Below are positions 23,071 to 40,805 of a DNA stretch of 40,988 nucleotides, piece by piece. This stretch comes from Bacteroidales bacterium (GTDB lineage: Bacteria > Bacteroidota > Bacteroidia > Bacteroidales > WRLA01). Under the pieces are notes generated by a model that made no database searches, was not told the DNA's origin, and saw nothing but the letters and a program-made list of their open reading frames with translations. The first letter of the stretch is position 1; each line of letters starts with the position of its first letter. The DNA is taken from the NCBI GenBank assembly GCA_031254805.1, contig JAIRTP010000058.1:1-40988 (forward strand), read 5' to 3'. The translations under genes were made by a program, and so were the position numbers.

Positions 23071-24789
23071 ATGAAAGCTTGGAGCATTATCTCGTCCATT
23101 TTGATCCTACTTGGGTCGCTGGGTATATTTCTTTATGGAATGAAATTGATGAGCGATTCTCTTCAAAAGGTTGCAGGGCACAGAATGCGTTCGATTTTGG
23201 CCAATCTGACTTCGAACAGATTTAAAGGGATATTTACTGGATTTTTAGTTACCTCGGTCATTCAATCATCGTCGGCGACAACGGTAATGATCGTTAGTTT
23301 TGTCAATGCCGGCTTGATATCTTTGATCGGCGCCGTGAGCGTCATCATGGGCGCTAATATTGGTACGACAATAACGGCATGGCTCATTGCATTGCTCGGT
23401 TTTAAAGTTTCTATTTCTACTTTCGCTATTGCTATTGTCGGGCTTACTTTCTTTTTGTTGTTTGCCAAAAATAGTCGTATGAGGAACATCGGCGAGTTGA
23501 TTATGGGGTTTGCCATTTTGTTTATCGGGTTGGAATTATTGAAAGATTCGGTGCCTGATATCAATAAAAATCCACAGATTGTTGAGTTTTTATCTTCCTA
23601 TACCAATATAGGCTATTTTTCGATATTGCTTTTTGTTTTTATCGGTACGATTCTTACCGTGATTATACAATCGTCGAGCGCAACGATGGCATTGACGCTT
23701 GTGATGTGTTATAACGGTTGGATTGATCTTCCGATTGCAGCCGCTATGGTTTTAGGGGAAAATATCGGAACGACTATTACGGCTAATTTAGCGGCTGTGA
23801 TGGCTAATACTGAGGCAAAAAGAGCCGCTCGAGCGCATTTAATTTTTAATATTATTGGCGTTATCTGGATGCTGATCTTATTTTATCCTGTTATTACCCT
23901 GTTGTCTAATTGGATTAAAAGCATGATGGGCTACGACCCAAGAATAACGACAAACGCCAAAGAGGTATTGCCGTTAACTTTAGCGTTGTTTCATACCGCT
24001 TTTAATATTGTAAATACTTGCTTATTAGTTGGTTTTTCTCCTCAAATAGCTAAATTGGCTGCATTGATGGTCCCGCAAAAAAAAGAAGACATGGAAGATA
24101 TATTCAAGTTAACTTATATCGATAAGAGTTTTTTTGGCACCGACGAACTTTCACTGATTCAAACGCAGAGAGAATTAACGGAGTTTAGCAAAAGACTTAT
24201 CAGAATGTTTGGATTTGTAAACCGTTTGGTTTTTGAACAACATCCGAAAGATTTTAGCGCTTTACTTAATAGAGTCGCTAAATATGAAGAGATAACCGAT
24301 AGGATGGAGGAGGAGATCGCTACTTATCTTTCTCATGTTTCGGAAGGGCAATTGAGCCATAAATCTGCAATGGAAGCGCGTGGTATTTTGAACATTATCG
24401 ACGATATGGAAAGCAGCGCGGACGTTATGTTTAAAATATCGAAGATTATCGAAGATTTTGATAATATGAAATTGGAATTTTCGAAGGAGCAACTTCAGCA
24501 TCTTGCCAAGATGAAAAATAAGGCTCAACAAGCTTTAGAAATTATGGATTACAATCTCCAAAATTGGGATAAAGCAGATTTTATTAAGGCTGTCGAATTG
24601 GAACAATCGATGAACGATTATCGAAACTTTTTAAGGGAAAAACATGTTGAAGATTTGAAGAATAAAGAATATAAATTTAAGGTAGGCTCATATTATTCGC
24701 AATTATTTAGCCTTTATGAAAAAATTGGAGATTACGTTTTCAACGTATCCGAATCGATTGATAAGACAAAAAATGTTGAAGAAAATTAA
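23071..24789 (+). CDS. Na+/phosphate cotransporter with C-terminal PhoU-like domain (copy 1)
   Basis: The 572-residue protein belongs to the NptA/Na-Pi II family. The membrane part (about 1-330) contains the internal inverted repeat that marks the family: QSSSATT near 66 and QSSSATM near 200, each followed by GANIGTT or GENIGTT. The cytosolic C-terminal part (about 350-560) is a helical PhoU-like domain with the segment EEEIATYLSHVSEGQLS. Sodium-driven phosphate import is the expected role; members with different selectivity exist. It stands 16 bases before a highly similar second copy, with no terminator between, so both should be on one mRNA. Confidence 0.92.
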   Translation: MKAWSIISSILILLGSLGIFLYGMKLMSDSLQKVAGHRMRSILANLTSNRFKGIFTGFLVTSVIQSSSATTVMIVSFVNAGLISLIGAVSVIMGANIGTTITAWLIALLGFKVSISTFAIAIVGLTFFLLFAKNSRMRNIGELIMGFAILFIGLELLKDSVPDINKNPQIVEFLSSYTNIGYFSILLFVFIGTILTVIIQSSSATMALTLVMCYNGWIDLPIAAAMVLGENIGTTITANLAAVMANTEAKRAARAHLIFNIIGVIWMLILFYPVITLLSNWIKSMMGYDPRITTNAKEVLPLTLALFHTAFNIVNTCLLVGFSPQIAKLAALMVPQKKEDMEDIFKLTYIDKSFFGTDELSLIQTQRELTEFSKRLIRMFGFVNRLVFEQHPKDFSALLNRVAKYEEITDRMEEEIATYLSHVSEGQLSHKSAMEARGILNIIDDMESSADVMFKISKIIEDFDNMKLEFSKEQLQHLAKMKNKAQQALEIMDYNLQNWDKADFIKAVELEQSMNDYRNFLREKHVEDLKNKEYKFKVGSYYSQLFSLYEKIGDYVFNVSESIDKTKNVEEN

Positions 24790-24805: not shown

Positions 24806-26530
24806 ATGAAAGAAGTTTGGGCTATTATCTCGCAAATTTTGATATTGCTTGGCTCTCTGGGAGTTTTTCTTTTCGGGATGAAACTCATGAGCGATTCGCT
24901 CCAGAAGCTTGCCGGACAAAAAATGCGTTTGATTTTATCGAAATTGACCTCTAATAGACTTAAAGGAATATTGACGGGGTGTTTTGTGACTTCGGTTATT
25001 CAATCTTCATCGGCTACGACGGTAATGGTGGTAAGTTTTGTTAATGCAGGATTGCTTTCGTTGGTTGGCGCTGTTAGCGTGATTATGGGCGCAAATATAG
25101 GCACGACTGTTACGGCGTGGCTGATCTCGCTGCTCGGATTTAAATTTTCAATAACAAGTCTTGCATTGGTCGTTGCCGGACTTACTTTTTTTCTTCTTTT
25201 TTCGAAAAATAACAAACATAAAACTATTGGAGAGTTCATTATCGGATTTGTGATATTGTTTATTGGCTTGGAATTATTGAAAGATTCGGTGCCTGATATC
25301 AACAGCAATCCTCAAATTGTCGAATTTTTATCGGCGTATACAGGAAAAGGCTATTGGTCGGTTTTATTATTTGTGTTGATAGGTACGATTCTTACGGCGA
25401 TCATTCAATCGTCAAGCGCAACCATGGCATTAACTTTGGTGATGGCGTATAACGGTTGGATTGATTTTCAGATAGCCGCCGCAATGGTTCTCGGTGAAAA
25501 TATCGGAACGACCATTACGGCCAATATTGCCGCGGTCATGGCCAATACGGAGGCGAAAAGATCGGCGCGGACACATTTTATTTTCAATGTCATCGGAGTA
25601 ATATGGATGCTTATTCTATTTTATCCGGTTATCGATCTTCTTTCAGGCGTGGTCATTAGAATTACCGGATTAGATCCGAGAGTAACCGCTCACGCAAAAG
25701 ATGTGCTGCCGATCTCTTTATCGTTGTTTCATACTTGTTTCAATTTGGCAAATACTGGCTTATTGGTTGGTTTCACGCCTCAAATAGCAAAATTGGCGAC
25801 TAAAATGGTTAAATCGAAACAAGATGATTCCGAAGAAGTTTTCAAATTGACCTATATTGATAAGAGCTTATTTACTACCGACGAGCTTTCATTGGTACAA
25901 ACTCAAAAAGAACTTATGGAGTTTAGCCGTCGAATCATTAAAATGTATGGTTATTTGAACCAATTGGTATTTGAAAAACATCCGAAGGATTATAATGTAT
26001 TGATGGTCAAAATTGCTAAATATGAAGAGATCACGGATCAGATGGAAGAGGAAATTGCGACCTATCTTTCTCATGTCTCGGAAGGGCAATTAAGTCATCA
26101 ATCCTCTTTATTGGTTCGCAGTATATTGAGTATCGTCGACGACATGGAGAGCGTAGCGGACGTTATTTTCAGAATGTCGAAAATGATTGAGGAGAAGGAT
26201 AATATGAAACAATCCTTTACCGAAGCTCAATTAAAGAATTTAGCGGCTATCAGAGATTTGACGCAAGAGAGCATCAATGTAATGGACGTCAATTTGTCGG
26301 ATTGGGAAAAAGCAAATTTCATAAGGGCCGTAGAGTTGGAAGAATCTCTCAATAATTATCGCAATAGATTGAAAGAAAAACATGTAGAATCTCTTAAAAA
26401 TAAAGAATACAAGTTTAAACTCGGGACCTATTACTCGCAACTTTTCATTATGTATGAAAAAATTGGAGATTATATTTTTGAAGTTTCCAAAGCCGTTAAC
26501 AAAGCAAATTCTATGGAAGCAATGATTTGA
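24806..26530 (+). CDS. Na+/phosphate cotransporter with C-terminal PhoU-like domain (copy 2)
   Basis: The 574-residue tandem paralogue of the preceding gene has the same layout: QSSSATT near 67, QSSSATM near 201, NIGTT after each, and a C-terminal PhoU-like region with EEEIATYLSHVSEGQLS. Alignment by eye runs end to end without gaps in the membrane part, and identity is clearly above half. Differences cluster in loop segments and in the region near 280-300 (VVIRITGLDPRVTAHAKDV versus WIKSMMGYDPRITTNAKEV), which could shift affinity. Divergence is large enough that this is an old duplication, not an assembly repeat. A hairpin at 26653 may end the transcript. Confidence 0.92.
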   Translation: MKEVWAIISQILILLGSLGVFLFGMKLMSDSLQKLAGQKMRLILSKLTSNRLKGILTGCFVTSVIQSSSATTVMVVSFVNAGLLSLVGAVSVIMGANIGTTVTAWLISLLGFKFSITSLALVVAGLTFFLLFSKNNKHKTIGEFIIGFVILFIGLELLKDSVPDINSNPQIVEFLSAYTGKGYWSVLLFVLIGTILTAIIQSSSATMALTLVMAYNGWIDFQIAAAMVLGENIGTTITANIAAVMANTEAKRSARTHFIFNVIGVIWMLILFYPVIDLLSGVVIRITGLDPRVTAHAKDVLPISLSLFHTCFNLANTGLLVGFTPQIAKLATKMVKSKQDDSEEVFKLTYIDKSLFTTDELSLVQTQKELMEFSRRIIKMYGYLNQLVFEKHPKDYNVLMVKIAKYEEITDQMEEEIATYLSHVSEGQLSHQSSLLVRSILSIVDDMESVADVIFRMSKMIEEKDNMKQSFTEAQLKNLAAIRDLTQESINVMDVNLSDWEKANFIRAVELEESLNNYRNRLKEKHVESLKNKEYKFKLGTYYSQLFIMYEKIGDYIFEVSKAVNKANSMEAMI

Positions 26531-27832: not shown

Positions 27833-28774
27833 ATGAATATTTTGAAAATATTTTTTGTATCTTTGACGTTACTTTTATCAATCGCATATAAAATGAATGG
27901 ACAAGAAGAAAAATATAACAAATTAACGCCTGAAGAAGAACGAGTTATCATTCGCAAAGGTACGGAAGCGCCGTTTACCGGAGAATATGATAAGTTTTTT
28001 AAAGCGGGAACGTATCATTGCAAGCGATGCGACGCTCCTTTATATCGTTCTGAAGACAAATTCCGTTCCGGATGCGGTTGGCCGAGTTTCGACGATGAGA
28101 TTGGAAACGCTGTAAAACAAATACCCGATGCGGACGGTCGGCGCACAGAAATCGTATGCGCCAGTTGCGGAGCGCATTTAGGTCATATTTTTGAGGGCGA
28201 ACATTTTACTGAAAAAAATACGCGTCATTGCGTGAACTCTGTTTCTATGATTTTTAAACCTAAAGAAGAAGTTAACGATATCACGCAAAATAAAACCGAA
28301 ATCGCTATTTTTTCGGGCGGTTGTTTTTGGGGCGTTGAATTTTACATGCGCTTGATTGACGGCGTTATATCTACCGAAGTCGGTTATATTGGCGGAATCA
28401 TGGAAAATCCTACTTACGAAGATGTTTGCAGCCATGAAACAGGATACGCTGAAGCGGTAAAGATTATTTTTGATTCAAATATTGCTGATTTTGAAACTAT
28501 TGCAAAGACTTTTTTTGAAATACACGATCCGACTCATTTAGATCATCAAGGTCCGGACGTAGGCGATCAGTATCGTTCCGAGGTTTTTTATACTACGCCG
28601 CAACAGCGGGAAATTACCATAAAGTTGATACGTATTTTGCAAAAAAAAGGATATAAAGTAGTAACGAAGGTGACGCCGGCGACCACTTTTTGGACTGCGG
28701 AAGATTATCATCAACAATACTATTATTACAAGCAAACTACTCCTTATTGTCACGGGCGTACAAAACGGTTTTAA
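27833..28774 (+). CDS. msrAB: Peptide-methionine sulfoxide reductase MsrB-MsrA fusion with signal peptide
   Basis: The enzyme reduces both epimers of methionine sulfoxide in damaged proteins. The 313-residue chain has a signal-like N terminus (about 1-20), an MsrB domain (about 28-145) with zinc cysteines C63, C66, C109, C112 and catalytic C133 in RHCVNS, then an MsrA domain (about 155-313) with catalytic C164 in GGCFWG. The MsrB-MsrA order is common in Bacteroidota. With the ATG at 27833 the protein is exported. A second in-frame ATG at 27893 would give a cytosolic form, and a perfect -7 element (27858-27865) lies between the two, so the true start is open. Confidence 0.92.
   Translation: MNILKIFFVSLTLLLSIAYKMNGQEEKYNKLTPEEERVIIRKGTEAPFTGEYDKFFKAGTYHCKRCDAPLYRSEDKFRSGCGWPSFDDEIGNAVKQIPDADGRRTEIVCASCGAHLGHIFEGEHFTEKNTRHCVNSVSMIFKPKEEVNDITQNKTEIAIFSGGCFWGVEFYMRLIDGVISTEVGYIGGIMENPTYEDVCSHETGYAEAVKIIFDSNIADFETIAKTFFEIHDPTHLDHQGPDVGDQYRSEVFYTTPQQREITIKLIRILQKKGYKVVTKVTPATTFWTAEDYHQQYYYYKQTTPYCHGRTKRF
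27858..27865 (+). promoter_or_regulatory. -7 element inside the msrAB signal-peptide region
   Basis: TATCTTTG is a perfect -7 match, 28 bases before the internal ATG at 27893. That spacing equals that of several well supported promoters in this window. It would yield an mRNA for a form without signal peptide. Confidence 0.4.
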
Positions 28775-33924: not shown

Positions 33925-34638
33925 TTATTTCATCGGAACTTCAATAAGAAGAATACGGGCGTTATCGCTTTCCGCTTTTATTTTTATTTCGTGCGTATCC
34001 CAAATTCCAATAGCGTCGCGACGATCCAATGAATGGCCTTCAAGCGAAAATTTTCCCTCTATTACCATGACAAATAGTCCATTGTCGCCGTCTTTCATGA
34101 AAAAATCAATCGCTTTGTCCTTATCAAAAATTCCCAAATAGAGATAAGCGTCTTGATGTATCCATAATCCGTCGCCGTTTTTATTCGGAGAAACGATTTG
34201 TACTAAATTATTACGATTTCCTTCAATATCGAATTTCATTTGTTGATAACGCGGCATAACATCCTCTTCATTAGGGAAGATCCATATTTGAAAGAAATTG
34301 ACAGGATCTTCTTCATGCGCATTAAATTCGCTGTGTCTAACGCCGGTTCCGGCGCTCATCACTTGTACTTCTCCCTTTCGAATTACGCCATGATTTCCCA
34401 TGCTATCTCTATGTTCCAACGCTCCGAAAAGCGGAATCGAAACGATCTCCATATTATCATGCGGATGCGTCCCAAATCCTTCTCCGCCTAAAACGATGTC
34501 GTCGTTCACTACGCGCAAAGCGCCAAAGCGTATCCTGTTCAAATCGTAATAATCGGCAAAACTAAACGTATGATATGTGTCTAACCAGCCATGATCTACA
34601 TGGCCTCTGGTATTTGCTTTAAAAATTATATTTTTCAT
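33925..34638 (-). CDS. Pirin-family cupin protein
   Basis: The 237-residue protein has the bicupin fold of the YhaK/YhhW group. The N-terminal cupin metal site is present: THPHDNMEIV near 57-63 gives two His, and RHSE near 101 gives the third ligand and Glu. YhhW/pirin members oxidise quercetin in vitro; the physiological substrate is not known. The gene is downstream of the NfeD-macro gene on the same strand with a 103-base gap that lacks an obvious -7 match. Whether it has its own promoter is undecided. AAGAAAGGA lies just before its ATG. Confidence 0.9.
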   Translation of the reverse strand: MKNIIFKANTRGHVDHGWLDTYHTFSFADYYDLNRIRFGALRVVNDDIVLGGEGFGTHPHDNMEIVSIPLFGALEHRDSMGNHGVIRKGEVQVMSAGTGVRHSEFNAHEEDPVNFFQIWIFPNEEDVMPRYQQMKFDIEGNRNNLVQIVSPNKNGDGLWIHQDAYLYLGIFDKDKAIDFFMKDGDNGLFVMVIEGKFSLEGHSLDRRDAIGIWDTHEIKIKAESDNARILLIEVPMK

Positions 34639-34741: not shown

Positions 34742-36601
34742 TTACCCTAATATGCTTTTATAAAGCAAGTAATTATCTTCTTCAAAACAACAAAATATTA
34801 CCTTTTCCGGAACATTATTGCTCTTAAGCCAATTTGATACCGTATCAATAGCGATTTCAGCGGCTTTATCTTTCGGGTACATATAGATACCTGTTCCCAG
34901 ATTTGGGAAAGCGATTGTTTTCAAATCATGTTTCAATGCCCATTGTAAGGAGTTTATATAACATTGTTCCAACAACTCCGGCTCTCCCTTCAATCCGCCA
35001 TGCCAAACAGGCGCAACGGTATGAATAATATATTTTACAGAAAGTCTGAAGCCTTTAGTAGCCTTTACTTCGCCCGTTTTACAACCGTCGAGTTTTGCAC
35101 AAGCTTCGGCAAGCTCCTTTCCTGCCGCGCGATGAATTGCGCCGTCAACGCCTCCGCCTCCGGCTAATCTGTTGTTTGCAGCGTTGACAATGGCGTCGAC
35201 TTCTAATTTTGTGATATCGCCTTTGAGAACTTCTATTTTATCTTTTAAATTTATCGTTTTCTCTTCTATTCTTGTTACATGCAATACGCCCACTTCGTAA
35301 TTAGCAACTCTGATTTTATCGCCCTTTTTAATAAAACCTGTAATTGCTTGAGCGTCTATAATATCTCCATCAATATAAACTTTTCCGGCAGGGCGTAAAT
35401 CGCTGAATGCCAGTCCCTCTTTATTCTTCATTGAAATATATTCTTGAAGTGCGATCGTATAACCTTGCGAACTTTCTTGCGTAGATTGCAATGCTAATCT
35501 GTCTAACGCTTTGGTGTCGCCAAGCAATTTTTTTGCTAAAAAAACAGAGCCGAAAAGCCCAATTGTGCCGCTTAACGTCACCAATCCGAATGCCTTAATG
35601 ATGGCAGAAAATAAAGAGCTCATATTGGGAAAACTAACGCCGTCTACTAAACTTAATGTCATTCCGACGACAATAAAAGCAATTCCTGCAACGCCGGTAA
35701 CTCCAAATCCCGGAATTGCAAAGATCTCTATTAAAAGCAGGATAACTCCCAAAATAAACAACACAATTTCCCAATGCGACGCCAAGCCTTCCAAATAGTG
35801 CGGCGCAAAATAAAGCACGGCGGCGGTAATTGATGCAATGAGAGGAAATCCGACTCCGGGAGATTGCAGTTCAAAATAAATACCTCCGATAATGATCATA
35901 ATAAGAATACTGCTCACAATCGGATTCACCAAAAATCCTATAATATAATCTATCCAAGTATATTTTGGCTTGATCACTTGCGGATCGTCAATTCCCGATT
36001 TGGCAATTACTTCGTTGATATTATTCACCTCTCCTTCGCAAAATCCCCATTTCATAGCTTCGCTGCTTGTCATAGTAAGAACTTTTGTAGAATCTATCAA
36101 TCCCGGCACATGCACGGTAGGGTCAACCATAGATTCGGCAATTTGCGGATTTCTTCCTTTAACTTCCGCCGTAGCGCGCATAATAGAACGCATATATGAT
36201 TGGTATTTGTCCGGAGCGGCTTCTCCGGTTTGTTGCACTACAGTAGCCGCGCCAATACTCGCTCCGGGAATCATATAAATGCTATCGCATGCAATAGAAA
36301 TCAAAGCTCCTGCCGAAGCGGCATTGTTATTAATAAATACATAAACAGGAATTTTTGAATGGAGCGCTTTTGTTCGCATACTATCTGCGCTCTCCAATAG
36401 TCCGCCATAAGTATTCATATCTAAAACAATCAGAGATACATTTTCCTCTTCTGCCATTTTAAATGCTTTCTGCATTTTATGCCACAAAGGAGGCGCAATC
36501 TCATCGTGCATTTCAAATATCAGTACTTTCTGACCGGATTGAGAGAATAGGAGAGGAGCAAGCGTCGCCAGCAATAATGTAAGGATCAACTTTTTATTCA
36601 T
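34742..36601 (-). CDS. NfeD/ClpP-class membrane serine protease fused to a macro domain
   Basis: One uninterrupted 619-residue frame has a signal peptide (about 1-21) and a ClpP-class protease domain (about 24-205) with Ser97 in AASAGA and Lys132 in the expected position. About five membrane helices (about 217-356) and the NfeD OB-fold (about 385-445, ending VLHVTRIEE) follow. After a short linker (TINLKD) there is a full macro domain (about 455-619) with GDIT (461-464), NAAN (473-476), GGGGVDGAIH (481-490) and LGTGIYMYP (568-576). These are the ADP-ribose-binding and MacroD-type catalytic motifs. No in-frame ATG separates the halves. The ATG at 36601 is preferred over 36619 because a -7 element lies at 36621-36628. 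NfeD proteins of this phylum normally stop after the OB domain. Confidence 0.88.
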   Translation of the reverse strand: MNKKLILTLLLATLAPLLFSQSGQKVLIFEMHDEIAPPLWHKMQKAFKMAEEENVSLIVLDMNTYGGLLESADSMRTKALHSKIPVYVFINNNAASAGALISIACDSIYMIPGASIGAATVVQQTGEAAPDKYQSYMRSIMRATAEVKGRNPQIAESMVDPTVHVPGLIDSTKVLTMTSSEAMKWGFCEGEVNNINEVIAKSGIDDPQVIKPKYTWIDYIIGFLVNPIVSSILIMIIIGGIYFELQSPGVGFPLIASITAAVLYFAPHYLEGLASHWEIVLFILGVILLLIEIFAIPGFGVTGVAGIAFIVVGMTLSLVDGVSFPNMSSLFSAIIKAFGLVTLSGTIGLFGSVFLAKKLLGDTKALDRLALQSTQESSQGYTIALQEYISMKNKEGLAFSDLRPAGKVYIDGDIIDAQAITGFIKKGDKIRVANYEVGVLHVTRIEEKTINLKDKIEVLKGDITKLEVDAIVNAANNRLAGGGGVDGAIHRAAGKELAEACAKLDGCKTGEVKATKGFRLSVKYIIHTVAPVWHGGLKGEPELLEQCYINSLQWALKHDLKTIAFPNLGTGIYMYPKDKAAEIAIDTVSNWLKSNNVPEKVIFCCFEEDNYLLYKSILG

Positions 36602-36620
36602 AAATAATGCATTTAACATG

Positions 36621-36735: not shown

Positions 36736-38214
36736 CTATTTTTCAATGGCCTCATTTATTTCATTAGAAACCGAATGATGATAATTCTTATGAATTTTAT
36801 AGCCAAAACTTGCGATTAAAATACTCATTACCGGACTGATAAGATTAAAAAAGCAGTACGGAAAATAGGTAAAAGTAGATACTCCTAAAATAGTAGCTTG
36901 CGTCATTCCGCAGGTATTCCATGGAATCAAAGGAGAAGTGACGGTAACGGCGTCTTCAGTAGTACGACTAAGTAAACGGCTTTCGTAGCCTTTCTCTTTA
37001 TATATATCTTTAAACATATTGCCTGTTAGAATGATAGAGATATATTGATCTGCTGTGGTAAGATTCAGAAAGATTCCCGATACAACGGTGGAAGCAACAG
37101 CGCCGACAGTTCGTTTCATGAAGCGGAAAAATAACGACGTAATACTTTCCAACATACCGCTTGCCGTCATGGCTCCGCCAAAACACATAGCGCAAATGAT
37201 CAACCAGATAGTGTTGAGCATACCGGCCATTCCGCGCGTAGAAACAAGATCGTTCAATTCGATATTTCCTGTATCAATATTGGAACCTCCATAAAAGGTA
37301 ACCAATAATCCTTTAAATTTGACTCCGAATCCGTCGATATTGCCTGCTATTTCTTGTAAAAGTTGCGGTTGAAAAATCAAAGCCAAAATCCCTGCAAGAG
37401 CGGTAGATAAAAACAGCGTTACGATCGAAGGAACTTTTTTGACAATCATAACAATCGTAGCAACCGGAACAAGTAAAAGCCAAAGAGAAATATTAAAAGT
37501 CTCTTTTAAAGAGCTCATATAGAGCGTAATTTGATCGGTAGCAGTAGTTTCATAAAAAAATCCGACAACAGCAAAAATCACCAATGTGATCAACATAGAA
37601 GGAATTGTTGTGATCATTAAATAACGAACATGCGTAAATAATGGCGTTCCTGTAACGGACGAGGCTAAAATTGTCGTGTCGGACAAAGGCGATATTTTAT
37701 CCCCGAAGTAAGCGCCGGAAATAATTGCTCCTGCAATCCATCCTAACGAAAAACCTTGCGCTTGTCCAATTCCTAAAAGAGCTATCCCGATTGTAGCGAT
37801 TGTCGTCCAGGAACTTCCCGTCATCACTGATACGATCGCGCAGACGACGCAGGCAGAAACCAAATAAAAACTCGGATGAAGGATTTGTATGCCGTAATAT
37901 ATCAATGTCGGAACAATTCCGCCGATCATCCATGCGCCTGACAATGCACCGATAATCAATAGAATCAAAATAGCCGGCGCTATTCCTGCAATATTCCGAA
38001 CAATAGCCTGTTCTATTTCTCTCCATTCAATTTTAGAGATGATAAGGGCAATAAAACAGCAAATAGCCGTCGATGTCAACAATACAATTTGACTACCGCC
38101 TTCCAAAGCGCCGCTTCCAAAAATCCGTATTGTGCAGAATAATAAGCCAACCAATACCATAATCGGTATCAACGATACAACAATTGATGGTTTTTTACGG
38201 TTTTGTCCTTCCAT
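36736..38214 (-). CDS. nhaC: Na+/H+ antiporter NhaC family
   Basis: The 492-residue inner-membrane protein has about eleven or twelve helices. NhaC hallmarks are visible: MTGSSWTTIATIGIALLGIGQAQGF near 131-155, GAYFGDKISPLSDTTILASSVTGTPLFTH near 167-195, and TSPLIPWNTCGMTQATILGV near 433-452. The family exchanges protons for sodium and can also carry malate-lactate. It has its own promoter and stands alone. The downstream gap to the NfeD-macro gene (134 bases) holds only A/T hairpins, so no clear terminator. Confidence 0.93.
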   Translation of the reverse strand: MEGQNRKKPSIVVSLIPIMVLVGLLFCTIRIFGSGALEGGSQIVLLTSTAICCFIALIISKIEWREIEQAIVRNIAGIAPAILILLIIGALSGAWMIGGIVPTLIYYGIQILHPSFYLVSACVVCAIVSVMTGSSWTTIATIGIALLGIGQAQGFSLGWIAGAIISGAYFGDKISPLSDTTILASSVTGTPLFTHVRYLMITTIPSMLITLVIFAVVGFFYETTATDQITLYMSSLKETFNISLWLLLVPVATIVMIVKKVPSIVTLFLSTALAGILALIFQPQLLQEIAGNIDGFGVKFKGLLVTFYGGSNIDTGNIELNDLVSTRGMAGMLNTIWLIICAMCFGGAMTASGMLESITSLFFRFMKRTVGAVASTVVSGIFLNLTTADQYISIILTGNMFKDIYKEKGYESRLLSRTTEDAVTVTSPLIPWNTCGMTQATILGVSTFTYFPYCFFNLISPVMSILIASFGYKIHKNYHHSVSNEINEAIEK

Positions 38215-38544: not shown

Positions 38545-38588
38545 CAATTATTACAAATTAATAAATGATAATTAAAATATTTAAAATT

Positions 38589-39155
38589 ATGACACCTGTA
38601 ATTAATTCTTACATTCCTGAATTTAAAGCGAATGCTTATCAAAATGGCGAATTCAAAGTAATAACCGACAAAGAAGTAAAAGGTAAATGGGGCGTTTTCT
38701 TTTTCTATCCCGCAGATTTTACTTTTGTTTGTCCTACTGAGTTGGAAGATATGGCGGAAAATTATGCGCGATTTAAAGAGCTTGGCGTGGAAATTTATTC
38801 CGTGAGTACCGACACACAATTTGTGCATAAAGCTTGGCATGACGTTTCCGACAGTATCAAAAAGATCAAATATCCTATGCTTGCAGATTCCACGGGAGCT
38901 TTATCGCGCGCTTTAGGCGTTTATATCGAAGAAGAAGGATTGGCTTATCGCGGAACTTTTCTTTTTAATCCTGAAGGACAAATCAAAGTTTGTGAAATTC
39001 ATGATAACGGCATCGGAAGAAACGCTTCCGAATTGCTTCGCAAAGTAGAAGCGGCTATATTTGTCGCAGAAAATCCAAACGAAGTTTGCCCTGCAAAATG
39101 GAAAAAAGGAGAAAAAACTTTGAAACCGGGTATCGATTTAGTTGGAAAAATATAA
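38589..39155 (+). CDS. ahpC: Alkyl hydroperoxide reductase subunit C (2-Cys peroxiredoxin)
   Basis: AhpC reduces H2O2 and organic peroxides in the cytosol. The 188-residue protein has the peroxidatic cysteine C48 in FTFVCPTE and the resolving cysteine C167 in EVCPAKW, nearly the same positions as in E. coli (46 and 165). The reading frame opens at 38565, but the ATG at 38589 gives the normal N terminus (MTPVINSYIPEF). AhpF follows 96 bases later and recycles it with NADH. A strong hairpin lies between them and should make ahpC mRNA more abundant than ahpCF mRNA. Confidence 0.97.
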   Translation: MTPVINSYIPEFKANAYQNGEFKVITDKEVKGKWGVFFFYPADFTFVCPTELEDMAENYARFKELGVEIYSVSTDTQFVHKAWHDVSDSIKKIKYPMLADSTGALSRALGVYIEEEGLAYRGTFLFNPEGQIKVCEIHDNGIGRNASELLRKVEAAIFVAENPNEVCPAKWKKGEKTLKPGIDLVGKI

Positions 39156-39169
39156 TGTCGGCTACTTAA

Positions 39170-39217
39170 ATATAAAAAACGGAGTAGAAATACTTTTACT
39201 CTGTTTTTTATATTTTA
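39170..39217 (+). terminator. Strong hairpin-terminator between ahpC and ahpF
   Basis: ATATAAAAAACGGAGTA (39170-39186) pairs with TACTCTGTTTTTTATAT (39197-39213) over 17 bases with one G-T pair and a 10-base loop. The descending arm has six T residues and TTTT follows. It looks like a terminator that must be read through for ahpF expression. Confidence 0.75.
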
Positions 39218-39251
39218 CCTTCTTCCTTAAAATTGTTAAAATCAAAAAGAT

Positions 39252-40805
39252 ATGTTAGATACGGAATTAAAAGAACAAGTGAAATCAATTTTTTCGCAAC
39301 TCTCATCTTCCTATACGTTCGACGTATATGTTCCTAAAAATCATGAAAGCAGAGAGGAATTGATCGAGCTATTGGAAGATACGGCTTTATGTTCTGAAAA
39401 AATAAAATTACGCGTGCATCAAAGCGATAATTTTGAATTTTATCTCTTAAAAAACGGCGTCAGGACAGGAATTAAATTCAGAATGGTTCCAAACGGACAT
39501 GAATTTTCTACATTGCTTTTGGCCGTCTTGAATTGCGATGGAAAAGGGAAAAATTTTCCGGATAATTTTATTCAAGAGCGTGTGAAAAAATTGAAGGGAA
39601 AAATACATATTACTACCTATATATCGCTTACATGCGTCAATTGTCCCGACGTAGCGCAATCAATCAATCTAATGACGATAATAAACTCGAATATTTCTCA
39701 TGAAATAGTCGACGGAGGCGCAAATCAGGAAGAGGTTGAAAAGTTGAAAATACAAGGTGTTCCGGCAGTTTTTGCAGACAGAAAACTGATTCATTCGGGA
39801 CGCGCTGAATTCGGGGAATTACTTGATAAACTTGAAGAGAAATATGGGACGGAGGATGTTACGACGAAATATGAAACAAAAAACTATGACGTCGTTATTG
39901 TTGGAGCCGGTCCTGCCGGGGCCTCCGCAGCTATTTATTCGGCAAGGAAAGGGTTGAAAGTCGCCGTTGTAGCAGAAAAAGTCGGCGGACAAGTAAATGA
40001 AACCATAGGAATAGAGAATTATATTTCTGTGAAACAAACTACCGGAGAAAAATTAGCTAACGATCTCAAAATACACATGCAAGAGTATTCGATCGACATT
40101 TTCGAAAATCGTAACGTAGAAAAGTTGGAACTTGACGGGAAAAATAAAATATTACATGTGAGAGGCGGAGAAACGTTTTCTACGTCGGCTCTTATCATCG
40201 CAACCGGAGCTAAATGGAGACGATTGAACGTGAAAGGCGAGTCGGAATATATTGGAAAAGGCGTGGCGTTTTGTCCTCATTGCGACGGCCCTTTTTATAA
40301 GGATAAACATGTGGCTGTGATTGGCGGCGGAAATTCCGGAATTGAGGCGGCAATTGATTTGGCAGGGATATGTTCCAAAGTGACTGTTTTGGAATTTATG
40401 GAAAATCTAAAGGCGGATAGCGTATTACAAGAGAAAGTAAATTCATTGCCTAATGTCGATGTTTTCCTTAATATTCAAACGACGGAGTTCATAGGAAACG
40501 ATGAAAAAATTGTAGGGATGAAGATAAAGGATCGGAAAACAGACAACGAGCGAATCATTGATTTGGATGGCATTTTTGTGCAGATCGGTTTGGCGGCGAA
40601 TAGTTCTGTTTTTGCAGATGTTGTTGCAACGAACATGATTGGCGAAATTATCATCGATGCGTATTGCCGCACCAATGTTTCCGGAATTTATGCCGCCGGC
40701 GATGTATCGACCGTTCCTTATAAACAGATTATTATATCTGCCGGCGAGGGAGCAAAAGCCGCTTTATCTGCATTTGAAGATAGAATGCGAGGCGTTTTAG
40801 AATAA
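39252..40805 (+). CDS. ahpF: Alkyl hydroperoxide reductase subunit F
   Basis: AhpF is the flavoprotein that passes electrons from NADH to AhpC. The 517-residue protein has the N-terminal tandem-thioredoxin domain (about 1-195) with redox pair C128/C131 in CVNCPD, the FAD site GAGPAGA (218-224), the thioredoxin-reductase-type pair C341/C344 in FCPHCDG, the NADH site GGGNSG near 355 and the second FAD motif GIYAAGDVS near 484. Positions match E. coli AhpF closely. Two possible transcripts serve it: read-through from ahpC, or a promoter inside the 96-base gap, where no good -7 match is seen. Confidence 0.97.
   Translation: MLDTELKEQVKSIFSQLSSSYTFDVYVPKNHESREELIELLEDTALCSEKIKLRVHQSDNFEFYLLKNGVRTGIKFRMVPNGHEFSTLLLAVLNCDGKGKNFPDNFIQERVKKLKGKIHITTYISLTCVNCPDVAQSINLMTIINSNISHEIVDGGANQEEVEKLKIQGVPAVFADRKLIHSGRAEFGELLDKLEEKYGTEDVTTKYETKNYDVVIVGAGPAGASAAIYSARKGLKVAVVAEKVGGQVNETIGIENYISVKQTTGEKLANDLKIHMQEYSIDIFENRNVEKLELDGKNKILHVRGGETFSTSALIIATGAKWRRLNVKGESEYIGKGVAFCPHCDGPFYKDKHVAVIGGGNSGIEAAIDLAGICSKVTVLEFMENLKADSVLQEKVNSLPNVDVFLNIQTTEFIGNDEKIVGMKIKDRKTDNERIIDLDGIFVQIGLAANSSVFADVVATNMIGEIIIDAYCRTNVSGIYAAGDVSTVPYKQIIISAGEGAKAALSAFEDRMRGVLE

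What the first reader, a model, noticed from the sequence alone, without database searches (positions are those of the whole stretch)
34742..36601. Membrane protease (NfeD/ClpP class) fused to a macro domain
The sequence shows one open frame carrying signal peptide, ClpP-type Ser97/Lys132 protease, membrane helices, NfeD OB domain and a full macro domain with ADP-ribose motifs. I know of no described NfeD protein with a macro domain. The junction (about 35240-35260) has no in-frame ATG, so the macro half has no obvious start of its own. A cytosolic macro module on a membrane proteolysis/scaffold protein could couple ADP-ribose or NAD-derived signals, or removal of ADP-ribose from proteins, to membrane quality control.
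Basis: partly seen in the sequence, partly recalled or inferred. Interest (0 to 1): 0.78.

Follow-up and report, generated by a model that had tools for sequence, protein, structure and literature searches.

The report
Membrane protease fused to ADP-ribose eraser
One bacterial genus has joined two genes that sit next to each other in its relatives into one protein, so that a membrane-bound protease/scaffold (NfeD) carries an enzyme-like domain that removes ADP-ribose; the fusion is real and seems not to have been described, but what it does is untested.

Summary
The minus strand of 34742-36619 is one open frame of 625 codons (619 from the likelier ATG at 36601) with NfeD1b protease, NfeD membrane, NfeD OB and Macro domains, and the key residues of both enzymes are intact. 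It is not an assembly error: a second species of the genus, about 60% identical and with other neighbours, has the same fusion without a stop. They are often adjacent: in 21 other nfeD loci of the order, and in 7 of 8 nfeD-bearing genomes of the family nearest in the NfeD tree, the macro gene lies just downstream on the same strand, at closest 2-3 bases from the NfeD stop. Six pairs share one reading frame. No other fusion turned up among about 1,270 genomes searched. So this is a genus-specific fusion of neighbouring genes, most likely by loss of the NfeD stop codon. The likeliest role is a MacroD-type hydrolase (mono-ADP-ribose or O-acetyl-ADP-ribose) held on the cytosolic side of the membrane by NfeD. 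That activity and its substrates are inferred, not shown.

The parts
34742..36619 (-). Fused gene NfeD1b-Macro, 625 aa (619 aa from the ATG at 36601)
   Evidence: open frame; all domains in one frame; same architecture in G002/L002
36542..36601 (-). Predicted signal peptide (residues 7-26, MNKKLILTLLLATLAPLLFS)
   Evidence: read from the sequence; no signal-peptide program was available
35972..36526 (-). NfeD1b N-terminal Ser-Lys protease domain (residues 32-216), Ser102 and Lys138
   Evidence: PF25145 E=1.2e-47; aligns with PH1510 structures 2deo/3bpp, E=1.7e-15 and 1.1e-14, with Ser97/Lys138 of PH1510 on Ser102/Lys138
35522..35956 (-). Membrane region, about five hydrophobic helices (residues about 222-366)
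   Evidence: PF24961 residues 235-330; hydrophobic segments in the sequence; five helices in a low-confidence model
35276..35422 (-). NfeD C-terminal OB domain, partner-binding (residues 400-448)
   Evidence: PF01957 E=4.8e-07; also found by the genome search
35240..35275 (-). Junction/linker (residues 449-460), the most variable part between the two fused homologues
   Evidence: residues 451-460 are 20% identical between the two genomes, against 49-68% in the domains
34745..35239 (-). MacroD-type macro domain (residues 461-625); Asn479, Asn482, Gly489, Asp492, His496, Tyr579
   Evidence: PF01661 E=6.3e-43; NCBIfam O-acetyl-ADP-ribose deacetylase model over its cut-off, 202.9 against 200 bits; E. 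coli YmdB and human MACROD1 structures; residues checked against PMC5413906

Best explanation
A true gene fusion, probably made when an nfeD gene lost its stop codon and ran into the in-frame macro gene immediately downstream. The product is an inner-membrane protein: an exported Ser-Lys protease domain on the outer (periplasmic) face, about five membrane helices, and a cytosolic OB domain that in NfeD proteins docks onto an SPFH (flotillin/stomatin) scaffold. The macro domain is held next to that OB domain. It most likely acts as a MacroD-type hydrolase that removes mono-ADP-ribose from Asp/Glu of membrane-associated proteins, or deacetylates O-acetyl-ADP-ribose made by the cell's SIR2 deacetylase, at the NfeD/SPFH microdomain. 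Shown by sequence: the fusion, its conservation in the genus, intact active-site residues, adjacency of the two genes in relatives, and that it is the only macro domain detected in the genome. Inferred: stop-codon loss as the route, topology, catalytic activity, SPFH docking, substrates.
For: Single frame with all domains. Same fusion in a second genome of the genus at about 60% identity with different neighbours; the macro part (63%) is conserved as well as the NfeD parts (49-68%), and differences fall mostly on third codon positions in both halves, which points to selection on both. nfeD and macro are adjacent separate genes, always same strand with macro downstream, in 21 other loci of the order and 5 more from family f21; six pairs align over the full length in the same frame. 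In the NfeD tree the fused pair groups with f21 at SH-aLRT 98, and in f21 7 of 8 nfeD-bearing genomes have the pair. The fused macro is the only Macro-family hit in both genomes, and each has a SIR2. Catalytic residues are intact. The OB domain of S. aureus NfeD is cytosolic and binds flotillin (PMC11222466).
Against: No activity, localisation or expression data. Internal translation start is not excluded: GTG443/TTG446 in the window, ATG448/ATG450 in G002. No SPFH gene lies beside the fusion; the genome's FloA has its own short NfeD on another contig. The placement with f21 is not recovered in the NfeD+macro tree and the macro tree is poorly resolved. Gly replaces the usual Ser in the FPxxSTG loop of the window's macro domain.
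Confidence: 0.6

Rival explanations
1. Bystander fusion: loss of the stop codon joined two housekeeping genes that lay side by side; both halves do their ordinary separate jobs and tethering has no special role.
For: In most genomes searched that have both genes they are not linked; the linker is unconserved, 20% identity; the fused macro is the only macro detected, so selection on it may simply be for its housekeeping role; part of the adjacency is inherited synteny with an upstream inositol monophosphatase gene.
Against: The fusion has persisted over about 40% amino-acid divergence in the genus, and the nfeD-macro pair is kept in most f21 genomes.
Confidence: 0.25
2. Reader module: the macro domain binds ADP-ribose or ADP-ribosylated proteins and recruits them to, or allosterically gates, the NfeD protease/scaffold without hydrolysing them.
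For: Macro domains can be pure binders (general knowledge); fusion to a scaffold protein fits recruitment; the window's macro has Gly in place of Ser in the FPxxSTG loop.
Against: The Asn, Asp, His, Tyr and Gly positions of MacroD-like hydrolases are all present, and the NCBIfam deacetylase model passes its cut-off.
Confidence: 0.1
3. Sequencing or assembly artefact that removed a stop codon between two adjacent genes.
For: The genomes are draft assemblies (127 and about 210 contigs), and relatives with the adjacent pair have a stop at this place.
Against: Two assemblies with about 60% identical proteins and different flanking genes both lack any stop or frameshift.
Confidence: 0.02

Closest known systems
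NfeD1b / STOPP proteases (Pyrococcus horikoshii PH1510)
   Same: ClpP-like Ser-Lys protease domain with Ser97/Lys138 equivalents, membrane helices, C-terminal OB domain
   Different: Extra C-terminal macro domain; no SPFH (stomatin) gene next door, whereas NfeD1b is described as paired with SPFH1b (PMC2636767)
MacroD-type macro domains (E. coli YmdB, Oceanobacillus OiMacroD, human MACROD1/2)
   Same: Sequence similarity over the whole domain (E about 1e-48) and all tested catalytic residues
   Different: The bacterial members named are stand-alone soluble proteins; here the domain is joined to a membrane protease/scaffold
Adjacent nfeD-macro gene pair in other families of the same order
   Same: Same two proteins, same order and strand, often with an inositol monophosphatase gene upstream
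   Different: A stop codon separates the two genes
FloA-NfeD (Staphylococcus aureus)
   Same: NfeD OB domain on the cytosolic side that binds a flotillin (PMC11222466); this genome also has FloA with a short NfeD
   Different: No macro domain; the fused gene here is not linked to floA

Membership tests
NfeD1b | N-terminal ClpP/SppA-like domain with Ser-Lys dyad | tested here: met
   PF25145 E=1.2e-47; Ser102 and Lys138 align with PH1510 Ser97/Lys138
NfeD1b | NfeD membrane domain followed by OB domain | tested here: met
   PF24961 and PF01957, both over the curated cut-off
NfeD1b | Operon with an SPFH1b (stomatin-like) gene | tested here: not met
   Neighbours are NhaC antiporter and pirin genes; FloA lies on another contig. 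The pairing is described in PMC2636767, which also notes NfeD genes outside such operons. I use the name NfeD1b for the domain architecture (Pfam), not for the operon
NfeD1b | Proteolytic activity on the partner's C-terminus | not testable with these tools
   needs an assay
MacroD-type macro domain | Asn (beta3-alpha1 loop), Asp (alpha1), Tyr (beta6-alpha4 loop), plus assisting Asn and His | tested here: met
   Asn482, Asp492, Tyr579, Asn479, His496, and also Gly489
MacroD-type macro domain | Hydrolysis of mono-ADP-ribosylated protein or O-acetyl-ADP-ribose | not testable with these tools
   needs an assay; NCBIfam NF001664 passes its cut-off, 202.9 against 200 bits
Fusion of neighbouring genes | The parts occur as adjacent separate genes in relatives | tested here: met
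   21 other loci in the order plus 5 more in f21

The most novel reading that the evidence does not exclude
NfeD1b and a MacroD-type ADP-ribosylhydrolase form a conserved functional pair in this order of bacteria, fixed as one polypeptide in one genus: reversible ADP-ribosylation (or SIR2-derived O-acetyl-ADP-ribose) regulates NfeD/SPFH membrane microdomains or the NfeD protease, a link not known for either family.
Probability: 0.3. Interest if true: 0.7.

Novelty: new variant of a known kind. Interest (0 to 1): 0.52.

Why it matters
The function of NfeD is stated to be unknown (PMC11222466), and the physiological targets of most bacterial MacroD hydrolases are unknown (general knowledge). A fusion together with recurrent gene adjacency links the two families physically and gives a concrete, testable hypothesis for both: ADP-ribose removal at membrane microdomains.

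Tried and rejected
Assembly or frameshift artefact: rejected by the second species. AlphaFold2 on the single sequence: mean pLDDT 39.7, useless, so no fold search was run; a deeper alignment was not submitted because loci from the genome search are not on that tool's list of permitted sources. The genome-contig scan used a single protein and found only one macro gene without an nfeD match. Viral contigs: no relatives. Plasmids: no record where one place covers 80% of the query. The macro-only tree is too poorly resolved to show that the fused macro descends from the f21 pair. Promoter-like sites: 9 found against 7.4 expected by chance, so no evidence for a promoter of the macro half.

Full report
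What is in the sequence. The minus strand of 34742-36619 is one open frame of 625 codons. Pfam finds, in order, NfeD1b_N (residues 32-216, E 1.2e-47), NfeD_membrane (235-330, 4.3e-24), NfeD C-terminal domain (400-448, 4.8e-07) and Macro (478-590, 6.3e-43), all over their curated cut-offs. NCBIfam's O-acetyl-ADP-ribose deacetylase model NF001664 just passes its cut-off (202.9 against 200 bits). The start is probably the second in-frame ATG, at 36601, which gives MNKKLILTLLLATLAPLLFS as signal peptide.

Catalytic residues. phmmer aligns residues 34-221 with the PH1510 protease structures (2deo, E 1.7e-15; 3bpp, E 1.1e-14). The catalytic dyad Ser97/Lys138 of PH1510 (PMC3795559) falls on Ser102/Lys138. 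The macro part matches E. coli YmdB (1spv, 1.9e-48; the identification of 1spv as YmdB is from general knowledge) and human MACROD1 (2x47, 2.7e-48) over its whole length. The residues named for OiMacroD (N27, N30, G37, D40, H44, Y134; PMC5413906) correspond to Asn479, Asn482, Gly489, Asp492, His496 and Tyr579, all present.

The fusion is not an artefact. Another genome of the same genus (G002, locus L002) encodes a 628-residue homologue, about 60% identical, without a stop. Its flanking genes differ from the window's. Aligned codon by codon, protease, membrane, OB and macro parts are 68, 56, 49 and 63% identical, with differences concentrated at third positions; the ten-residue linker 451-460 is 20% identical. 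The third genome of the genus, 68% complete, shows neither gene.

Where it came from. About 1,270 genomes were searched with the fused protein: relatives, family, order, class and phylum, and family f21. Matches were listed best first and no other uninterrupted full-length match appeared. In the order, six loci align over the full length with one or two stop codons between the halves (G331, G264, G302, G041, G111, G372). Of 114 nfeD-bearing loci fetched, 23 also hold a macro gene within the fetched flank: the two fused ones and 21 others, all in this order, and all on the same strand with macro downstream. In 13 of the 20 separate pairs measured from the first batch, the macro ATG is within 42 bases of the NfeD stop, at closest 2-3 bases. 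These loci were the best-scoring matches, so 23 of 114 is not an unbiased frequency. In 18 of the 23 an inositol monophosphatase gene is also in the locus, so part of the adjacency is inherited synteny.

Trees. In the NfeD tree (90 rows, quick search) the two fused proteins are sisters (SH-aLRT 99) and group with family f21 (98). In f21, seven of the eight genomes with nfeD have the macro gene directly downstream as a separate gene. In the tree of NfeD and macro parts joined, the fused pair is again one clade (100/100), but its attachment to f21 is not recovered, and a macro-only tree is poorly resolved. A single fusion event in the genus is the simplest reading; stop-codon loss in an in-frame pair is the likely route but was not observed as such.

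Could the macro part still be made alone? No in-frame ATG lies between residues 397 and 580. GTG443 and TTG446 are in frame in the window, and ATG448/ATG450 in G002, so an internal start is not excluded.

How it probably works. The signal peptide would place the protease domain in the periplasm; about five hydrophobic helices would bring the OB and macro domains to the cytosol (inferred; the helix count comes from the sequence and a low-confidence model). NfeD's OB domain is cytosolic and binds flotillin in S. aureus (PMC11222466). The genome has one FloA, with its own short NfeD, on another contig. The fused macro is the only Macro-family hit in both genomes, and each has a SIR2, a class of enzyme whose product O-acetyl-ADP-ribose is a known MacroD substrate (general knowledge; OiMacroD hydrolyses it). 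I therefore propose a membrane-tethered MacroD-type hydrolase. Activity, substrates and partner are untested.

Literature. No paper in the library holds both NfeD and 'macro domain'. The single hits for NfeD with 'macrodomain' and with 'ADP-ribose' were one on lipopolysaccharide membrane macrodomains, unrelated, and one on eukaryotic vault particles, not opened. The library lacks most subscription papers and no protein-architecture database could be queried, so 'not described' is provisional.

Verdict. A real, conserved, genus-specific new domain combination built from two known families that are neighbours in relatives: a new variant of a known kind, with a good testable hypothesis and no functional proof.

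Noticed in passing
window 23071-24789 and 24806-26530 (+): Two tandem Na+/Pi-cotransporter genes with PhoU domains, of nearly equal length and the same domain layout, 16 bases apart; looks like a tandem duplication.
   Followed up: no
window 27833-28774 and 38565-40805 (+): Fused methionine sulfoxide reductase B/A gene matching NCBIfam NF004042, and AhpC and AhpF genes for peroxide defence: several oxidative-stress genes in one window.
   Followed up: no
window 33925-34638 (-) and 36736-38214 (-): The fused gene is flanked by a pirin gene downstream and an NhaC-type Na+/H+ antiporter gene upstream, all on the same strand; the related genome G002 has other neighbours.
   Followed up: partly
L003, L004, L043, L046, L049, L051, downstream of the macro gene: Several nfeD-macro loci are followed by similar exported proteins that look like carbohydrate-binding outer-membrane proteins (read by eye).
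   Followed up: no
L002 (G002), residues 448-450 of the fused protein: Two in-frame ATG codons at the end of the OB domain could serve as an internal start for the macro half in this species.
   Followed up: no
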